Assembly (NCBI GenBank): GCA_001512785.1 | Contig: LFSQ01000086.1 | Location: 1-42,706, forward strand | Direction: 5' to 3' | Origin: Syntrophomonas sp. DTU019 | GTDB lineage: Bacteria > Bacillota > Syntrophomonadia > Syntrophomonadales > Syntrophomonadaceae | DNA: 42,706 bases | Shown here: piece after piece, positions 18,909 through 36,374 of the stretch | How positions within the stretch are numbered: the first letter of the stretch is position 1 | How the letters are laid out: the number at the start of each line of letters is the position of its first letter | Position numbers and translations under genes: made by a program | Notes under the pieces: generated by a model | What the model saw: only the letters and a program-made list of their open reading frames with translations | Told to the model about the DNA's origin: nothing | The model's database searches: none

Positions 18909-18949
18909 GCCAACAGAATAGCCAACAAAAAGAACGTCCCTCTGTTGGC
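18909..18949. repeat. CCAACAGA-type palindromic repeat
   Basis: GCCAACAGA (18909-18917) pairs with TCTGTTGGC (18941-18949). The inside carries a GCCAACAAAAAGAACGTCCC stretch. It belongs to the same family as the elements at 28955, 39014 and 14878. It begins 2 bases after the hydrolase stop and may act as its terminator or stabiliser. Confidence 0.8.
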
Positions 18950-28387: not shown

Positions 28388-28927
28388 ATGAATATTTCTG
28401 AAAAGTTTGCTAATGTGCCAAAGATCGAAACGGAACGTCTCATTCTGAGAAAAATCACATTAGATGACGCAGAAGATATGTATTTGTATGCTTCGGATGA
28501 AGAAGTTACGAGATATGTAACCTGGGATACTCATTCCTCATTATCTGATACCATTGCATTTATAAATACATTTTTGTCTCAATATCATGTTCCATGGGGC
28601 ATTGAGCTCAAAGAAAATGGTAAATTTATTGGAACCGTTCACTTTGTATGGTGGCAGCCGGAACACCATAGTGCTGAAATTGGATATGTTCTGTCTAAAA
28701 AGTACTGGGGCAAGGGGTTAATCACCGAAGCAGCAAGGGCAATTATTTCCTTTGGCTTCGAAAATATGAACTTGGTGCGTATTCAGGCGAGATGCTTTGT
28801 AAAAAACAAAGCTTCAGAGCGTGTTATGCAAAAGTTGGGTATGTCTTTTGAAGGTATAAGCAGAAAAGCCATGTATGTTAAAGGGGAACATAAAGACTTA
28901 AAGGTATACTCCATATTGAAGTTTTAG
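28388..28927 (+). CDS. GNAT acetyltransferase (RimJ/RimL type)
   Basis: A 179-residue N-acetyltransferase: ETERLILRKITLDDAEDMY start, IGTVHF strand, EIGYVLSKKYWGKGLITEAA with the acetyl-CoA pyrophosphate loop (KKYWGKGL), and RIQARCFVKNKASERVMQKLGM near the end. This matches the RimJ/RimL group, which acetylates ribosomal or other N-terminal amines or small amines. The gene is AT-richer than its neighbours and its ribosome binding site is poor (GGTGG), hinting at acquisition from elsewhere. It is followed closely by a palindromic repeat. Confidence 0.88.
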   Translation: MNISEKFANVPKIETERLILRKITLDDAEDMYLYASDEEVTRYVTWDTHSSLSDTIAFINTFLSQYHVPWGIELKENGKFIGTVHFVWWQPEHHSAEIGYVLSKKYWGKGLITEAARAIISFGFENMNLVRIQARCFVKNKASERVMQKLGMSFEGISRKAMYVKGEHKDLKVYSILKF

Positions 28928-28954: not shown

Positions 28955-28992
28955 TGGCCAACAGAGGGCTCCTGTTGGCCCTCTGTTGGCCA
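28955..28992. repeat. CCAACAGAGGG palindrome downstream of the helicase operon
   Basis: TGGCCAACAGAGGG (28955-28968) pairs perfectly with CCCTCTGTTGGCCA (28979-28992), loop 10 bases containing another TGTTGG. It lies between the convergent GNAT and SNF2-helicase genes and may serve as a bidirectional terminator. Same family as 18909, 39014 and, with a changed terminus, 14878. Confidence 0.85.
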
Positions 28993-29056: not shown

Positions 29057-31879
29057 TCATCCGGGGAGCCTGTTAAAGACCGACAGGTCCAGCTGCAGTG
29101 ATTTACATATATTCTCGGGCAGAAGTCTATGGTCTTCATCTATGGAGAAGCTTTCCCAGTCAGGTGTGCCGCCCAGAATAAAGCTGAACCACCTTTCCCG
29201 TTGTTTAACCGTACGGAGTATAGACTCATCCACCGTGTCCTGGATATAGGGGTAATAAATCTCCAACTTCGTTCCAGGGCCAGAGTCTCGGTTCAACCGA
29301 GATACCAGGCTGTTTATCCGATCAATCCTGCCTACCCGTTGCTCGAGAGAGGCTGGATTCCATTCCAGGTCATAATGAACTACACGCCTGCATTCCTTTT
29401 GCAGATCGATGCCCTCCTGGGCGAGAGGTAAAGTTATCAAAACCATGGGATAAAACGGTGTATTAAAGCCCTCCTTCATCTTCTCACGGCTATTTTCGGC
29501 TACGCCACCATATAGTATATCCACAATGGAGCTTTCGCGGAGGCCATATAGCATGTTTTCCTTATCTACCTTGGTTGGAGCATTGGCATAGTTTTCTAAA
29601 AAGCGCTGCGTAGCACTATCCCAGTTGAAATCCGCCCCTTTGAAAAAGGCTTCGGGGATGAGTTTGGTGCGTTTTTGCCAGGGTTTCTTTACCTCAAGTT
29701 TCTTTAAGGTAATGAAAAATGATTTGTCGCGTTGCAGGAATTTTTTCAGGCCATCCACCACGTCTTCGCGGTCTTCAGGTTGCAGTTTATTTAATATGTC
29801 GCGATATCTGGTCCAAATACCTTTGTACTCGATAAGGCGATTAATTACCTCATAGGAGATACTCTTAACCCCCGAACTGCTTTCTTCGCCCTCATCCCGC
29901 TCAGTTTCGTCTTCTTTCATGTTAAGACCTAGTTCAATGTATCGGGGATCTAAGATATTTTTGATGGTTGCTCTCATTGAAGGGGCTAAATTATTCCAAT
30001 TGACCTGATGTTTATCGATAGCGCGTTTAAACACAACCTGTTCAACGATTCGTTTGAGATACATCATGTTGGTTTTTTTGCTACGGTTATATTGGGCATA
30101 TAGTGCTGACACCTCATCCGCAATCTGCTCGCCTGCTATGCCCAACCTTTTGCCTGGAAGGACCACATCCAAAACCGTCTGAATATAGTTTTCCTGCAGG
30201 TAGTACCAGGCGCTGTCCTGTTTATTGGTAAATCTCCTCTGGTAGTTGGCAAAAGACTGCTCTGGGTTTTCTGGAAAAAGGGATTCAATAGACCTTTTTT
30301 GCTTTCTCTCATAGTATCTTTCCAGCCTTTCCTTTATGGCGCGGGCACTTTCCACCCTGCCGCAGAACACCAGAGTTTTTTCATTTTTCTCCAGCGCTTC
30401 CGCTATATTAGCTGCAAGTTCCTCCAGTTTGGGATGTTTGCTTCTTTCCGGCAAAATCTTCTTTATGGTGTTTAATGCAGCTAAATTGTCACGCTGGTAC
30501 AGACTGCTGGCTTTTAGCGCTTCATAGGTAGAGGTCATGGACTGTTTGACGGTAGGGATAAAGGTGCGATCCTTAGTTTTAAATAATTCATATATGGTTT
30601 TTTCCCATAATGCAAAAGGAATATAGTGGTCTTCACCGATGGGGATGCCGGCTTTGTTATTGTCATTCATCTTACCGAGAACTTCTTTGCGGTATTTACT
30701 CTTATTTCTTGTGTTGCGTATCACGAAACGGCTCATGATTTCCTGCAGGTTTTCTTTTTTACTCAGCACGTCTTCATATAATCTCAAGGCCTCTTCGACA
30801 TCAACTGAAGCTACATCCCGATTGTCGTTTTCAACCGCCTTGATGAAACTGGCAGTTTCATCAGGTTGCAGGTGATGCCACGCATTCTCAAAGTAAGATA
30901 TACTGGCTTTATATTCCTTGATTGCCGATTTTAATCTATCACAATCAGCGCTGAATTCCTGCCTTGCGGCTTCACCTACAGCAGAGTTTTTAAACAGCTC
31001 CAAGACGGCAAACAGTTCTCCTTCAGACAATTGAAAGGGAGTAGCGGTCAAGAACAAGCCACGATCATACCTATTGGCCAGCATAGTCAGTAGTGCTTGA
31101 TGTCGTTTGGTGGAGGGGTTCTTCACTTTGTGGGCTTCATCCAATATAAACAGAGAAAAGCCGGGCAACCGTGCGTTTAAGGCTTTGTACCTCAATTGAT
31201 CTAATCCGGTATTTATCCGTACCTGGCTCATATCATTGTCATCATATGCCCTGTCGAGTTCTTCGTAGCAGTCCTCAGGAATATCGTAGTATCTGGTCCA
31301 CTTATCGGTAATCCTCAGTGGATCCTCAACCAGCGCGGGATCCCCTAACACTTTTTCCATAATCCTCCCACGAGTGGCGTAACTGAGGCTTCTCTTCCGG
31401 AACCAACAATTCAGGTAAAACGCTTTTTCGTGTTTCCATCCCCCGGAGGTAAAGATATCGATGGGAACAACCACTACCTGCTTATTGTAAGCACCGCTTA
31501 TAAATTGGCGGATATTTTCTACGGTGCCGTTTTTCTCCACATGGAAAATATCTGCTTCGCTCAATAATCCCTGCCGGTCATTGACTTCAACAAACCTTTT
31601 GATGTCATCGACCCACTTCTTCTGCATCATCCAGCTTGGCGCCACAATCAATACCGGTTTACCGGGGTTCTGGGAAAGATAATAGTAGATTGTCGCTATG
31701 GCCATATAGGTTTTGCCCATACCTACATCATCGCCCAGGATCACTCCAGGACGCTGCTCCAGGATTTCAACGATGCGAACCGCCGTAGCCAGCTGCAGAT
31801 CAGCTGTTTTTTCATCGATAACATCGCCCTTACCCTTCATGTCCACCATTCTGTTGAGATTATCATATATGGTATTCAT
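29057..31879 (-). CDS. SNF2-type superfamily 2 helicase/translocase (940 aa)
   Basis: A large DEAH-box SNF2-like ATPase. Motif I is GDDVGMGKT (49-57, K56), followed by LIVAPSWM (Ia), ILDEAH (245-250, II), FLTATPFQ (277-283, III) and, in the second RecA domain, KTLVFCG and EQRVGRIDRI (VI). Between the RecA domains and inside the second one there are long charged insertions (about 300-470 and 540-780), as in RapA/DISARM-type rather than eukaryotic remodellers. It should translocate on duplex DNA. It is the last gene of a three-gene operon; ATG overlaps the PLD stop by 4 bases (ATGA), with AGAGGT upstream. It has no nuclease domain itself. Confidence 0.9.
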   Translation of the reverse strand: MNTIYDNLNRMVDMKGKGDVIDEKTADLQLATAVRIVEILEQRPGVILGDDVGMGKTYMAIATIYYYLSQNPGKPVLIVAPSWMMQKKWVDDIKRFVEVNDRQGLLSEADIFHVEKNGTVENIRQFISGAYNKQVVVVPIDIFTSGGWKHEKAFYLNCWFRKRSLSYATRGRIMEKVLGDPALVEDPLRITDKWTRYYDIPEDCYEELDRAYDDNDMSQVRINTGLDQLRYKALNARLPGFSLFILDEAHKVKNPSTKRHQALLTMLANRYDRGLFLTATPFQLSEGELFAVLELFKNSAVGEAARQEFSADCDRLKSAIKEYKASISYFENAWHHLQPDETASFIKAVENDNRDVASVDVEEALRLYEDVLSKKENLQEIMSRFVIRNTRNKSKYRKEVLGKMNDNNKAGIPIGEDHYIPFALWEKTIYELFKTKDRTFIPTVKQSMTSTYEALKASSLYQRDNLAALNTIKKILPERSKHPKLEELAANIAEALEKNEKTLVFCGRVESARAIKERLERYYERKQKRSIESLFPENPEQSFANYQRRFTNKQDSAWYYLQENYIQTVLDVVLPGKRLGIAGEQIADEVSALYAQYNRSKKTNMMYLKRIVEQVVFKRAIDKHQVNWNNLAPSMRATIKNILDPRYIELGLNMKEDETERDEGEESSSGVKSISYEVINRLIEYKGIWTRYRDILNKLQPEDREDVVDGLKKFLQRDKSFFITLKKLEVKKPWQKRTKLIPEAFFKGADFNWDSATQRFLENYANAPTKVDKENMLYGLRESSIVDILYGGVAENSREKMKEGFNTPFYPMVLITLPLAQEGIDLQKECRRVVHYDLEWNPASLEQRVGRIDRINSLVSRLNRDSGPGTKLEIYYPYIQDTVDESILRTVKQRERWFSFILGGTPDWESFSIDEDHRLLPENICKSLQLDLSVFNRLPG

Positions 31880-33816
31880 ATCGTTAAACCTCTCAATCCA
31901 TAATCCCTAAGCAAGGTTCTATATTGCTCCCTGTTTCTACCCCGTGCTGCCTGGAATATGTCCCTGATCATGTTGCTTAATCGACTACTTATTTCGGCGA
32001 GAATACGCATTTTTTCTTCCGCCGTGAGTTGATCAGGTTCGAAGTTCAACTGCGACAACATATAAGCCATTTCGGCAGCATAGAAAAACGCCTCCTGGGG
32101 TGACATACTGTTATTAATGTACTCCTCTTCAAAAAGCCTGGTGAGCTTATCAAGGCCCCATGGGGCATAGATTTCGTATTTAAAACCCGCTTCGCTCCAG
32201 GCCGGCCTCTCCAGGCATTGTTTTATGCCGTCAAGGGCCTTAAAGAAATTGCCCAGTTTCCTCCTGAAGCCCAACAAGACGGCCTGGTCTTCGGTCAAGC
32301 CCATATTGGCAAGGTTGCGTTTAATCGCCATGATATCTTCTGTGCTCCGGTATTTACCGGCATAATAATCCAGTATATCCTCCAACCCAGGCTCAAAATC
32401 GCCACCGCTTATGTCATCCTGTGATGCTGCATACTTGTCCTTCACACTGATTGGTACTGTAAAAGAAAACTGCCCGCATTTGATTTCGAGATCCTTATCG
32501 TGTCCCAGCGTAAAGTCAGGGATAATAATCTCTAGCTCAGGTTCCTCAGCACGGTATATTACCTCCTGCTGGTAGATTACCTCAAAGGGATATACAGCTT
32601 TATTAACATTGACATAAATCCTGAGCGTGGGGTTATTATCGTCACAACTAAACCAGGCTGAATCGATAAAGATAACCAGTTGCTTTGTATCGGGTGGTTT
32701 CGGTTGGTCGGTTATTAGCTGGTGATAGTCTACCTTGGTCAAGGGTGGAAACCAGAGCCGTTTTTTAGTAAACTCAAATACCCCGATTTCAACATTTTTC
32801 ATCTGGCTTGAGCTGGAATTCATAGCAGCCTTGGTGAAGTTGGGAGATCCCATAACATAGAGCCATTCACCATTTTGAAAACCAACTTCAATAAGCTTGG
32901 CATGCAGAGGGCGTAAACGAGGCTCATCGTCTTCATCTGTCCACTGCTCAGAAATGAGTGCATATGACAGTTTCGGCATGCTCTGGCTTAATTCAGCAAA
33001 CAGGCTGAGCGGCGCATTGACATGCCATTTCCCGGTATCCTCGGTCTTATAGCCAGGGAAACAAAACTCTACTACAGCTTGTTTTTTCATATATTTATAG
33101 AGGCCGGAAAATAGTTCACCCATCATGCTGCTCTCCAGGGTTTGCCCGTATTCCGATTCATAAAAAGGTGACATAACCCGTAAACTTCTTATAACCTGGC
33201 CTTGTTTTTCGATAATTTCATGAAGTTTACCGACAAAGGATTGTTCGTGTAAGCTGGAATGGATTACTACACTATCAGCAGATGTTTCAGTAGCTATATT
33301 GCTGAGGAATCTTATTATCTGCCTGATGGCCGCATTATCCTCCTGGCCCGCATACTCTGCTACCCTTTTGATAATATCTGCAAGAGCCGCCCCGATACCG
33401 GATTTGTCGCCTTTACGAATATCATAATGCCAGATGAGTTCCGCATTGTAACATAGACCAGCTCGAGTGAGATTGCAGGAACCTATGATCACCCGGAGAT
33501 AGTCAGTATACTGTAATAAGAAGCACTTTGGATGAAAGGTACAATCTTTGACATTAAGCAAATCGTAGAGGAAGGTCTTTCCCCCCTTATAGCCAGCAGC
33601 ATCGACCATTACCGTGACCGGCTTTTTTAGCAGGGCATCCGCCACTTGATGGCGAAAACGCCTCTCGTTGTCGGAGATGTCAGTATCAATCTTGAACAAA
33701 GCTGGAAGTACATGCTGTTCGAACAAATCGGCATCAAAGCTGTAGGTCATCAGAAGAGCGGCAACAATCTCGTCAGAGGGGTTCCCCTCAAAAAGCTCAA
33801 ACATACTCTTCATCAT
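31876..33816 (-). CDS. PLD-superfamily phosphodiesterase with Tdp1-like motifs
   Basis: A 646-residue protein with two PLD half-sites: H95-x-K97 ... GSCN (N115) and H305-x-K307 ... GSPN (N326). Both lack the Asp of classic HKD motifs. The first has the 18-residue Lys-to-Asn spacing of Tdp1 (human H263/K265/N283), with Tdp1-like surroundings (LLQYTDYLRVIIGSCNLTRAG region and SPNFTKAAMN). It may cut DNA or resolve DNA-protein links. Residues about 370-450 form a beta-rich insertion and 480-646 a helical C-terminal domain. GTG at 33825 could also start it, but ATG 33816 follows GGGGTGG by 6 bases and overlaps the upstream stop (ATGA). Middle gene of the operon. Confidence 0.82.
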   Translation of the reverse strand: MMKSMFELFEGNPSDEIVAALLMTYSFDADLFEQHVLPALFKIDTDISDNERRFRHQVADALLKKPVTVMVDAAGYKGGKTFLYDLLNVKDCTFHPKCFLLQYTDYLRVIIGSCNLTRAGLCYNAELIWHYDIRKGDKSGIGAALADIIKRVAEYAGQEDNAAIRQIIRFLSNIATETSADSVVIHSSLHEQSFVGKLHEIIEKQGQVIRSLRVMSPFYESEYGQTLESSMMGELFSGLYKYMKKQAVVEFCFPGYKTEDTGKWHVNAPLSLFAELSQSMPKLSYALISEQWTDEDDEPRLRPLHAKLIEVGFQNGEWLYVMGSPNFTKAAMNSSSSQMKNVEIGVFEFTKKRLWFPPLTKVDYHQLITDQPKPPDTKQLVIFIDSAWFSCDDNNPTLRIYVNVNKAVYPFEVIYQQEVIYRAEEPELEIIIPDFTLGHDKDLEIKCGQFSFTVPISVKDKYAASQDDISGGDFEPGLEDILDYYAGKYRSTEDIMAIKRNLANMGLTEDQAVLLGFRRKLGNFFKALDGIKQCLERPAWSEAGFKYEIYAPWGLDKLTRLFEEEYINNSMSPQEAFFYAAEMAYMLSQLNFEPDQLTAEEKMRILAEISSRLSNMIRDIFQAARGRNREQYRTLLRDYGLRGLTI

Positions 33817-35135
33817 ACTGTCCACCCCAAATCGGAGATAATTGAAAACAAGTTAGGCAGCTTATAGGTATGCTGACGCCCCATGTTTTCCTTGCTGTAA
33901 CTATAACCAGTAAAAGCATTAACCTCGTCTCCGGAAATATCGAACCACAGTCCCGATTTTCTTTTTGTCTCGACTGCACTGTGCAGTTTATGAATTGACC
34001 TTATAAACTGTTCAGGATTTACACCAGATTGTAAAGCTGATAGTAAGTTTAGAAATTCCTTACCGTGGTAATATCCGGCCAACTCATGGTATTGCGGTGA
34101 TCGTGTGAGTCTCTCAACCAGTTGATGTTCGTATATGGTCTGCAAGAATGGAGCTACATGCGGTACCAGTTCTTTTACCGTGATCGTGCCGCCTTTGTCA
34201 AAAGCAGCTTTGAGCAGAGCACAGAAGGCATTATTCAACTGTATCGAAAGCAGTTCAAAGCAGTATATGGTTTCGAAGCTGGCTCTGACTATGTTTTCGG
34301 TTGCATCGGTGGTGTGTATATTTGCTAATGTACTAATGCCTTCAAGATAGCTGTTTTGAAACCGGTCCCGATTGGAAACGGCCATCCTGGCAGTAGCATG
34401 GGTGATCTCATCACCTTCGATGATATACTTGATTAACAACCCTCTCTCCTTATCCAATGCCTGTGCGAGGTTATGGTCAGCCTGGGAGAACAAATCCAGG
34501 CGTGCATACCTGCCAAAATTAGATATGGAGGCCTGCCCATGTTTCTCCAAGATTTTTTGTTGGTGAATGCTCTCCGTCAAAAGCTCTTCGTATTGGGTAC
34601 GCATTCTATCCCCAACCGGCATAAAGCTCTCTGCCAATTCATGACCCCTCATGGTAAGAGAGAGGGAAGACGATTTGATTAGACCAAATTTCTCCAGTGA
34701 ACTCCGGTAGGCTCCTAATCCTCCCAGCTCTAGCTGCCGGGAAAGCAACCGGTAGGAATCTCCCAGGGTTTTTAATCCATTGCTTACTGCTTTTATTGCT
34801 CCCCTCTTGCCACGGAGCTCCTTTTCGTTGTCATCCCGCTCTTTTATGTTACCTTCATAAGAAATCACCACAGCATACGCCCAGTACTTCTCATAGAGTT
34901 CGTACAACCGTGAAACGGTCTTGTCATTCATAGAGTAGCCATATTTCTCTATGGCCTTTTCGCAGATCATTAGCCCATAACACACTACCGAATAGTATCT
35001 GGCCCGGGCGGTGCGGGTAGTAAAGTTGGGCAGGGGCAGGTAGCCAAGCTGCTGAGCCATGTAATCAAGCGCCAAGGGATCAGTTGCACTCACATGATTT
35101 TCCAGTGGACTGTACTTGGTCCAGAAAATAGGCAT
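33813..35135 (-). CDS. Unrecognised helical protein, first gene of the SNF2/PLD operon
   Basis: A 440-residue protein that I do not recognise. It looks mostly helical: no signal peptide, no membrane segment, no nucleotide-binding motif. An N-terminal segment (PLALDYMAQQLGYLPLPNF, then TARARYYSVVCYGLMICEKA) is followed by helix-rich middle (130-330) and a C-terminal part ending in KENMGRQHTYKLPNLFSIIS. GGAGG lies 6 bases before ATG 35135; the upstream ATG 35159 has no such site. Its stop overlaps the PLD gene start by 4 bases. By position it may be a sensor, specificity or structural subunit of the putative system. Confidence 0.7.
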   Translation of the reverse strand: MPIFWTKYSPLENHVSATDPLALDYMAQQLGYLPLPNFTTRTARARYYSVVCYGLMICEKAIEKYGYSMNDKTVSRLYELYEKYWAYAVVISYEGNIKERDDNEKELRGKRGAIKAVSNGLKTLGDSYRLLSRQLELGGLGAYRSSLEKFGLIKSSSLSLTMRGHELAESFMPVGDRMRTQYEELLTESIHQQKILEKHGQASISNFGRYARLDLFSQADHNLAQALDKERGLLIKYIIEGDEITHATARMAVSNRDRFQNSYLEGISTLANIHTTDATENIVRASFETIYCFELLSIQLNNAFCALLKAAFDKGGTITVKELVPHVAPFLQTIYEHQLVERLTRSPQYHELAGYYHGKEFLNLLSALQSGVNPEQFIRSIHKLHSAVETKRKSGLWFDISGDEVNAFTGYSYSKENMGRQHTYKLPNLFSIISDLGWTV

Positions 35136-35286
35136 CTCATTCCTCCATTGGTAAACCATTCTATCATTACATTAAGGCTACTCTTTATACAATTAATTCT
35201 AGTATTCTCCACCTGTCAGCAAATTCCTTCGCAAATACCAAAGTGTATTCCTGTTATCGCGGTCAATAAATTATGATTCAATAATA

Positions 35287-35408: not shown

Positions 35409-36374
35409 CTATGGCAGCTGGTTGATGGTTATCGTCCCGTGTTGATGGATGATGGTCATTTTGTGCAGGCCATTGCCCATTTTGCTTTCCATGGTCTTGA
35501 TCGCCTCATATCTGTCAATGCCACGAGAAGCGCTGTGTTCCTGGACTGCATCATTATTGGTCGTATCCCTGGCTGCTGTCTGTTCCTCGCGGGTAGTCCA
35601 GTTTAGATTTCCCGCCACATTCTGCTCTTGGGGCAGCAAAACCGACACCAATACATCTGCCGGTGAAGCCAGTGATATGTCAGTCCGCCCACTACCCTTG
35701 ATCAGCCAGTCATTGCCCGGCCTGGCATTGGCAATCTCAAGACTGGCAGTGTCATGCTCTATCTCCACTGCCAACCGCTGCGGGAGCACCAGGCTATACT
35801 TGCCGTCATATGCGCCGCTGTCCGGGCCCAGTCGCAAGTACATGGTGTTACCGCTGGTGCTGCTCTTAACCAGAACCTGATTTGCCAATTCCTGCTCAGC
35901 TTCACTCCTGGATGCTGCCTGTATAGCCACCTGAGTATTGCAGAGTATGGTATCGCTCTGGGCAGTCCTTAAATCCAGTTTAGAACAGCGCTCAGCTTTA
36001 ATCACCAGCCTTTGAATGTGTTTGCCCACCGCTATTTCCTGGTCAGCTTGCAGGTAAAAGCGTTCCGCAATGATATTCTTCTGAACATAGTCAGCCAGTC
36101 CAAGGTGGCTGGCAGTTTGCAGGAAAAGACCTGCCATGACAATGATAAAGACGATGAATATGCTGAAAATATCGTACTTGACTCTGCCATCTTCAACCTT
36201 ATTAAAATAGGCCTGCAGCAGGACCTCCAAGCCCAGCAGTACAAATATCAGCGGCCACCATTGCAACAGGTATTCGGTTGCCGGGTACGGTTGCAATTGG
36301 CCGTACAACAGCAGTATACCGGTAGCCAGCAGGAGTATCCCCATGGAAAAGGTTCCGACCCGCCATTGCCTCAT
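35409..36374 (-). CDS. LiaI/LiaF-like membrane protein of an ECF sigma module
   Basis: A 321-residue protein with three N-terminal membrane helices (about 9-28, 38-57, 70-88; FSMGILLLATGILLLYGQ..., QWWPLIFVLLGLEVLLQ), the LiaI/LiaF-like TM arrangement, and an extracytoplasmic beta-rich adhesin-like domain (about 105-250; VEIEHDTASLEIANARPG, ISLASPADVLVSVLLP). Such proteins sense or buffer envelope stress. AGGAGGT stands 6 bases before the ATG, which overlaps the previous stop (ATGA). Last gene of the sigma/anti-sigma operon. Confidence 0.75.
   Translation of the reverse strand: MRQWRVGTFSMGILLLATGILLLYGQLQPYPATEYLLQWWPLIFVLLGLEVLLQAYFNKVEDGRVKYDIFSIFIVFIIVMAGLFLQTASHLGLADYVQKNIIAERFYLQADQEIAVGKHIQRLVIKAERCSKLDLRTAQSDTILCNTQVAIQAASRSEAEQELANQVLVKSSTSGNTMYLRLGPDSGAYDGKYSLVLPQRLAVEIEHDTASLEIANARPGNDWLIKGSGRTDISLASPADVLVSVLLPQEQNVAGNLNWTTREEQTAARDTTNNDAVQEHSASRGIDRYEAIKTMESKMGNGLHKMTIIHQHGTITINQLP

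What the first reader, a model, noticed from the sequence alone, without database searches (positions are those of the whole stretch)
29057..35135. Candidate defence system: unknown protein + Tdp1-like PLD protein + SNF2 helicase
Three minus-strand genes overlap by 4 bases each (ATGA), so they form one tightly coupled unit of 440, 646 and 940 codons. SNF2-type helicases with PLD-superfamily proteins are a recurring anti-phage theme (DISARM has DrmD and DrmC; Dpd has SNF2 and PLD parts; Azaca may be related, from memory). Here the methylase, DrmA and DrmB of DISARM are missing, the PLD protein has HxK...N motifs in both halves, and the first gene is unrecognised. A translocase feeding a DNA- or DNA-protein-cleaving phosphodiesterase is a reasonable model; defence function is inference.
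Basis: partly seen in the sequence, partly recalled or inferred. Interest (0 to 1): 0.85.

Follow-up and report, generated by a model that had tools for sequence, protein, structure and literature searches.

The report
Three-gene SNF2–phospholipase D defence operon
Three overlapping genes encode a DNA-tracking motor, a DNA-cutting enzyme built like human Tdp1 and an unknown helical protein; the same trio recurs in distant bacteria, often beside known anti-phage systems, so it is most likely an uncharacterised relative of the Azaca-type anti-phage systems.

Summary
In detail: three minus-strand genes of 440, 646 and 940 codons, each overlapping the next by the four bases ATGA, with intact Walker A, DEAH and two HxK...N motifs. 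A search with gene A alone over 84,980 bacterial and archaeal genomes found 12 loci in Bacillota, Planctomycetota, Pseudomonadota, Myxococcota and unplaced MAGs. All 11 undamaged loci carry A, B and C in the same order with coupled start and stop codons; the twelfth is a deletion remnant joining A to C. A Methylocystis plasmid has the same trio. Several sit against BREX, DISARM, Septu-like or Qat genes.

Profile comparisons place B and C, over nearly full length, with PADLOC's untested candidate PDC-M27 and, more distantly, with Azaca, which also has the order A-B-C. Gene A is a divergent relative of PDC-M27A and, weakly, ZacA. A has no Pfam, PADLOC or PDB match of its own; B folds like Tdp1.

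Best reading: a rare, horizontally acquired branch of Azaca/PDC-M27-type defence in which an SNF2 translocase controls a Tdp1-like nuclease, with A as adaptor or sensor. Identity and operon structure are shown; anti-phage function and mechanism are inferred. It is a new variant of a known kind.

The parts
33813..35135 (-). Gene A, 440 aa all-helical protein of unknown fold; divergent relative of PDC-M27A and, weakly, ZacA (DUF6361)
31876..33816 (-). Gene B, 646 aa Tdp1-like PLD-superfamily protein: two HxK...N half-sites (H95/K97/N115 and H305/K307/N326), a beta domain (about 384-455) and a helical C-terminal domain (about 461-646)
29057..31879 (-). Gene C, 940 aa SNF2-type SF2 translocase; Walker A K56, DEAH 247-250, motif VI QRVGR 847-851, with a long insert between the two RecA lobes
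33813..33816 (-). A/B 4-base ATGA stop-start overlap (translational coupling)
31876..31879 (-). B/C 4-base ATGA stop-start overlap (translational coupling)

Best explanation
A self-contained three-gene anti-phage (or anti-mobile-element) system of the Azaca/PDC-M27 kind. SNF2 protein C tracks along double-stranded DNA with ATP and, on meeting invading or abnormal DNA, delivers or activates the Tdp1-fold phosphodiesterase B, whose two HxK...N half-sites form one active site that cuts DNA. Helical protein A is made first in the operon and bridges or gates B and C, or recognises the target. Shown here: gene content, order and coupling; conservation of all catalytic motifs; B's Tdp1-like predicted fold; homology to PDC-M27 and Azaca; placement beside known defence systems in several relatives. 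Inferred: that it defends against phage, that B cuts DNA, that the three form a complex, and A's role.
For: Co-occurrence: a gene-A-only search gave 12 loci; 11 of 11 undamaged ones hold A-B-C in order, usually with 4-nt overlaps, and L030 is an A-C deletion remnant. A Methylocystis plasmid carries the same trio. Homology: B vs PDC-M27B E=3e-16 over 582 columns; C vs PDC-M27C E=4e-41 over 803; B vs ZacB 1e-7; C vs ZacC 1e-23; the DISARM helicase DrmD matches C over only 68 columns. A vs PDC-M27A: 7 of 13 members match, best 5.9e-7, and profile-profile E=1e-5. Both comparison systems have the order A-B-C. Context: BREX PglZ/BrxD/BrxHI in L028 and DrmD in L024; PtuA/PtuB-like and LmuA in L026; QatC and RmrA on the Methylocystis plasmid. 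Acquisition: absent from 30 relatives including three congeners, synteny with a congener stops at 35409, and GC3 is 0.49-0.51 against 0.61-0.62 in immediate neighbours except the acetyltransferase gene. Fold of B: the first 34 PDB matches are Tdp1, E=1.7e-10.
Against: The window itself is not a recognisable defence island: the neighbours scanned look housekeeping or unrelated. A's link to ZacA is weak (E 0.002-0.005 over a single motif), and A has no PDB or viral fold match. PDC-M27 is itself only a predicted defence candidate. No phage data exist. The background rate of PADLOC hits around random genes was not measured, and some flank hits (protein kinase, UvrD-like helicase) are generic.
Confidence: 0.72

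Rival explanations
1. A DNA-repair operon: a Tdp1-like enzyme that removes proteins covalently bound to DNA (for example stalled topoisomerases), brought to lesions by an SNF2 translocase.
For: B's closest solved fold is Tdp1, an adduct-repair enzyme, and its HxK...N half-sites lack the classical PLD aspartate; SNF2 motors act in repair generally (family knowledge).
Against: Patchy presence: absent in 30 relatives and rare in phylum samples; plasmid carriage; neighbours such as BREX, DISARM and Qat; relatives of its proteins in Azaca, reported as anti-phage.
Confidence: 0.12
2. A defence system aimed at plasmids or other conjugative DNA, or a suicidal DNA-degrading system triggered by damaged DNA as in Hachiman, rather than direct phage restriction. 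(A sub-case of the best explanation: same parts, different target or outcome.)
For: Helicase-gated nucleases can work this way: in Hachiman, HamB restrains nuclease HamA until it senses DNA damage (PMC12278908). No methylase or other conserved fourth gene was found, so self DNA is probably not protected by modification.
Against: Nothing here separates this from direct restriction; the architecture is shared with Azaca, which was reported as anti-phage.
Confidence: 0.25
3. A decayed or partial DISARM locus that retains only the SNF2 and PLD parts.
For: C matches DrmD models (E about 6e-27 in PADLOC, 3e-33 in NCBIfam) and B weakly matches DrmC.
Against: C scores 115 bits against a DrmD cut-off of 610 and aligns to DrmD over only 68 columns, against 803 for PDC-M27C; the same three genes recur without DrmA, DrmB or a shared methylase; one locus (L024) carries a separate complete DrmD beside the trio.
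Confidence: 0.03

Closest known systems
PDC-M27 (PADLOC phage defence candidate, predicted only)
   Same: Same gene order A-B-C; B and C align over nearly full length (E=3e-16 and 4e-41); A shares the RQ-x-x-LG-x-x-G-x-Y motif and a C-terminal block (E=1e-5).
   Different: Window gene A has no direct PDC-M27A hit; family C proteins fall outside the PDC-M27C pair on the tree, though those branches are long; 1e-44 for C and 1.6e-9 for B are far below scores of true family members (a real PDC-M27A scores 2.6e-174).
Azaca (ZacA-ZacB-ZacC; Millman et al. 2022, cited in PMC10952713)
   Same: Three genes in the same order; PLD-type B and helicase C with both HxK half-sites; a shared FPG-x-(S/T)T-x-x-(T)RA-x-Y(F/Y) motif near the A N-terminus.
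   Different: ZacA is DUF6361, and none of 13 new A proteins matches DUF6361; ZacC is longer, about 1,100 aa; B and C match ZacB and ZacC only in part (217 and 334 columns).
DISARM (DrmD SNF2 helicase, DrmC PLD)
   Same: Combines an SNF2 helicase with a PLD protein.
   Different: No DrmA, DrmB or methylase in the unit; helicase similarity limited to conserved motifs.
SauUSI and single-chain PLD-helicase proteins
   Same: PLD nuclease coupled to an ATP-dependent SF2 motor; SauUSI appears among the fold matches of B (E=2e-4).
   Different: Fused into one chain; no counterpart of A; much weaker fold match than Tdp1.
Tdp1
   Same: Two-lobed fold and HxK...N half-sites without the classical aspartate.
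   Different: B has extra beta and helical C-terminal domains and lies in an operon with an SNF2 motor; no sequence-level PDB match.

Membership tests
PDC-M27 | C protein of PDC-M27C type | tested here: met
   Best PADLOC hit of C, E=1e-44; profile-profile E=4e-41 over 803 columns
PDC-M27 | B protein of PDC-M27B type | tested here: met
   E=1.6e-9; profile-profile E=3e-16 over 582 columns
PDC-M27 | A protein of PDC-M27A type | tested here: inconclusive
   No direct hit of the window protein; 7 of 13 family members hit, best 5.9e-7; profile E=1e-5 over 65 columns
PDC-M27 | Gene order A-B-C on one strand | tested here: met
   L039 and L038 have A-B-C in the same order
Azaca | ZacA (DUF6361) first gene | tested here: not met
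   No DUF6361 hit in 13 members; ZacA hit in only 2 of 13, best 0.0022; profile E=0.002 over one motif, probability 15%
Azaca | ZacB PLD protein | tested here: inconclusive
   Best PADLOC hit of B, E=2.2e-14 over residues 67-349; profile E=1e-7 over 217 columns only
Azaca | ZacC helicase | tested here: inconclusive
   E=1.2e-25 over helicase motifs; profile E=1e-23 over 334 columns; on the tree ZacC forms its own clade without window C
Azaca | Order A-B-C | tested here: met
   L013, L014, L017, L018
Azaca | Protection against phage | not testable with these tools
   Needs plating assays
DISARM | DrmA and DrmB, with a methylase | tested here: not met
   Operon holds three genes; no conserved fourth gene in relatives
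DISARM | DrmD-type helicase | tested here: not met
   115 bits against a curated cut-off of 610
Tdp1 / PLD superfamily | Two HxK...N half-sites in a two-lobed fold | tested here: met
   Invariant residues; fold match of the predicted model to Tdp1 E=1.7e-10
SNF2 translocase | SNF2 N-terminal and helicase C-terminal domains with Walker A, DEAH and motif VI | tested here: met
   PF00176 E=7e-20, PF00271 E=1.5e-14; motifs invariant across 13 proteins

The most novel reading that the evidence does not exclude
The trio is a third distinct branch of tripartite SNF2 / Tdp1-fold / helical-adaptor immunity, and B acts chemically like Tdp1: it attacks protein-linked DNA ends made by phages or conjugative elements (terminal proteins, relaxases), with A as a new kind of sensor for such ends.
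Probability: 0.1. Interest if true: 0.8.

Novelty: new variant of a known kind. Interest (0 to 1): 0.52.

Why it matters
It joins an orphan helical family to the Azaca/PDC-M27 group and shows that one three-gene plan (A helical, B Tdp1-fold PLD, C SNF2) recurs in at least three strongly diverged forms in distant bacteria. It supplies conserved residues to test, and members from named cultured hosts (Sedimentibacter, Calidifontibacillus, Caballeronia, Methylocapsa, Enhygromyxa) for a group of systems with no mechanism found in the papers searched here.

Tried and rejected
Permease hits of gene A in two same-phylum genomes were rejected as chance: they are ABC-transporter permeases matching 83 residues. 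Viral contigs hold no relative of A. PDC-M27A was not found in 299 genomes of the same phylum, so the phylum of Caballeronia was searched instead. Fold search of A gave nothing. An exact empty site was sought through the flanks: right-flank synteny ends at 35409, but the left side is not syntenic, so no clean insertion ends were defined. No paper names PDC-M27 or DUF6361 in the library searched. The C tree leaves the deep order of the new family, PDC-M27C and ZacC unresolved, with long-branch warnings. Promoter-like and terminator-like sites were no more frequent than in shuffles.

Full report
WHAT IS IN THE SEQUENCE. The three minus-strand genes are as described. Gene A spans 33813-35135 (440 aa); a longer start at 35159 is possible, but GGAGG sits just before the 35135 ATG. 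Gene B spans 31876-33816 (646 aa) and gene C 29057-31879 (940 aa). Each stop overlaps the next start in ATGA. C K56 is the Walker A lysine, and H95 and H305 of B are the histidines of its two HxK motifs.

WHAT THE PROTEINS ARE. C carries SNF2 (PF00176, 7e-20) and helicase C-terminal (PF00271, 1.5e-14) domains. B weakly matches PLDc_2 and Tyr-DNA_phospho. An AlphaFold2 model from 11 family members (pLDDT 79.8) matches Tdp1 best: the first 34 PDB hits are Tdp1, E=1.7e-10. Both half-sites (H95, K97, N115, E126; H305, K307, N326, E343) are invariant in 11 aligned B proteins. The position where classical PLD enzymes have aspartate is not aspartate, as in Tdp1 (Tdp1 motif from general knowledge). 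A has no convincing Pfam, NCBIfam, PADLOC or PDB match; its model is all-helical (pLDDT 76.7) and matches no solved or viral structure.

RELATIVES AND CO-OCCURRENCE. A scan of 84,980 genomes with a gene-A alignment gave 12 loci. In all 11 undamaged loci A is followed by B and C on the same strand, in most with a 4-nt stop-start overlap at both junctions; in L022 B is split into two frames. The twelfth, L030, joins the first ~150 codons of A in frame to codons ~644-672 of C, a deletion remnant. A Methylocystis plasmid has A, then B, then C across the record's start. Because the search used A alone, this co-occurrence is not built in. No fourth gene is shared between loci, so no partner methylase is evident. 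The system is rare: only the window's own genome in 398 of its phylum (two further hits were permeases), and only the seed genome in 398 genomes of the phylum of Caballeronia. The 12 loci are a lower bound, since the scan needs two short peptide patterns.

DEFENCE CONTEXT. L028 carries BREX PglZ, BrxD and BrxHI upstream; L024 carries a full DrmD, E=0; L026 carries PtuA/PtuB-like genes and LmuA; the Methylocystis plasmid carries QatC- and RmrA-like genes. L021 (kinase) and L029 (UvrD-like helicase) have weaker, generic hits. BrxL, integrase, HerA and ABC-3C domains also occur among the 69 flank proteins. No matched control set was run. The window itself lacks such neighbours among those scanned.

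MOBILITY. The operon is absent from 30 relatives including three congeners. Similarity to a congener's chromosome ends at 35409, the end of the neighbouring gene. GC3 of the three genes is 0.49-0.51 against 0.61-0.62 in immediate neighbours other than the acetyltransferase gene. This fits horizontal acquisition but is not proof, since some other window genes also have GC3 near 0.5.

WHERE IT BELONGS. Six Azaca loci were found in 299 genomes of the phylum, and those with enough flanking DNA have ZacA (DUF6361), ZacB, ZacC in that order. One strong PDC-M27 locus (L039) and a divergent one in Caballeronia (L038) also have A-B-C order. Profile comparisons: B to PDC-M27B E=3e-16 over 582 columns, to ZacB 1e-7 over 217; C to PDC-M27C 4e-41 over 803, to ZacC 1e-23 over 334, to DrmD 4e-12 over 68. 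A to PDC-M27A 1e-5 and to ZacA 0.002, with 7 of 13 members hitting PDC-M27A, best 5.9e-7. Thus the trio is nearest PDC-M27, then Azaca, and is not DISARM. The A-ZacA link rests on one colinear motif and on shared gene order, so it is suggestive only.

MECHANISM. Shown: catalytic motifs, predicted fold of B, operon coupling, homology. Inferred: C translocates on DNA and controls B; B cuts DNA; A bridges or senses. A precedent for a helicase that restrains a nuclease until it meets abnormal DNA is Hachiman HamAB (PMC12278908); PLD nucleases tied to helicases recur in DISARM, Dpd and BRIGADE (PMC12458937). Rivals are adduct repair, anti-plasmid or suicidal action, and decayed DISARM. That Azaca protects against phage is taken from the literature (Millman et al. 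2022, from memory and as listed in PMC10952713).

VERDICT. A real, coherent, conserved three-gene unit and a new variant of the Azaca/PDC-M27 kind, with function still to be tested.

Noticed in passing
L030:6800-7360: Deletion remnant: the first ~150 codons of gene A are fused in frame to codons ~644-672 of gene C.
   Followed up: partly
L038:4047-15998: The Caballeronia calidae genome holds a second, PDC-M27-like A-B-C set beside an SNF2 gene and another gene that look ZorD- and ZorC-like by eye (not confirmed by HMM).
   Followed up: partly
L013:70-4737: A 1,555-aa helicase resembling the YprA/DUF1998 type (by eye) lies directly upstream of an Azaca operon.
   Followed up: no
window 28388-28927: GNAT-like acetyltransferase with low GC3 (0.37); an 88% identical copy lies at an unrelated place in a congener, suggesting it moves.
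   Followed up: partly
window 28955-28992: A 16-bp hairpin (TGGCCAACAGAGGG...) between the convergent acetyltransferase gene and gene C, probably a shared terminator.
   Followed up: no
window 18922-18949: A 28-bp sequence that occurs several times, also inverted, in a congener's DNA, once just beyond the synteny break next to the operon's right neighbour.
   Followed up: no
L005:3029-6768: Methylocystis plasmid: QatC-like, RmrA-like and PDC-S70-like genes directly upstream of the trio.
   Followed up: partly
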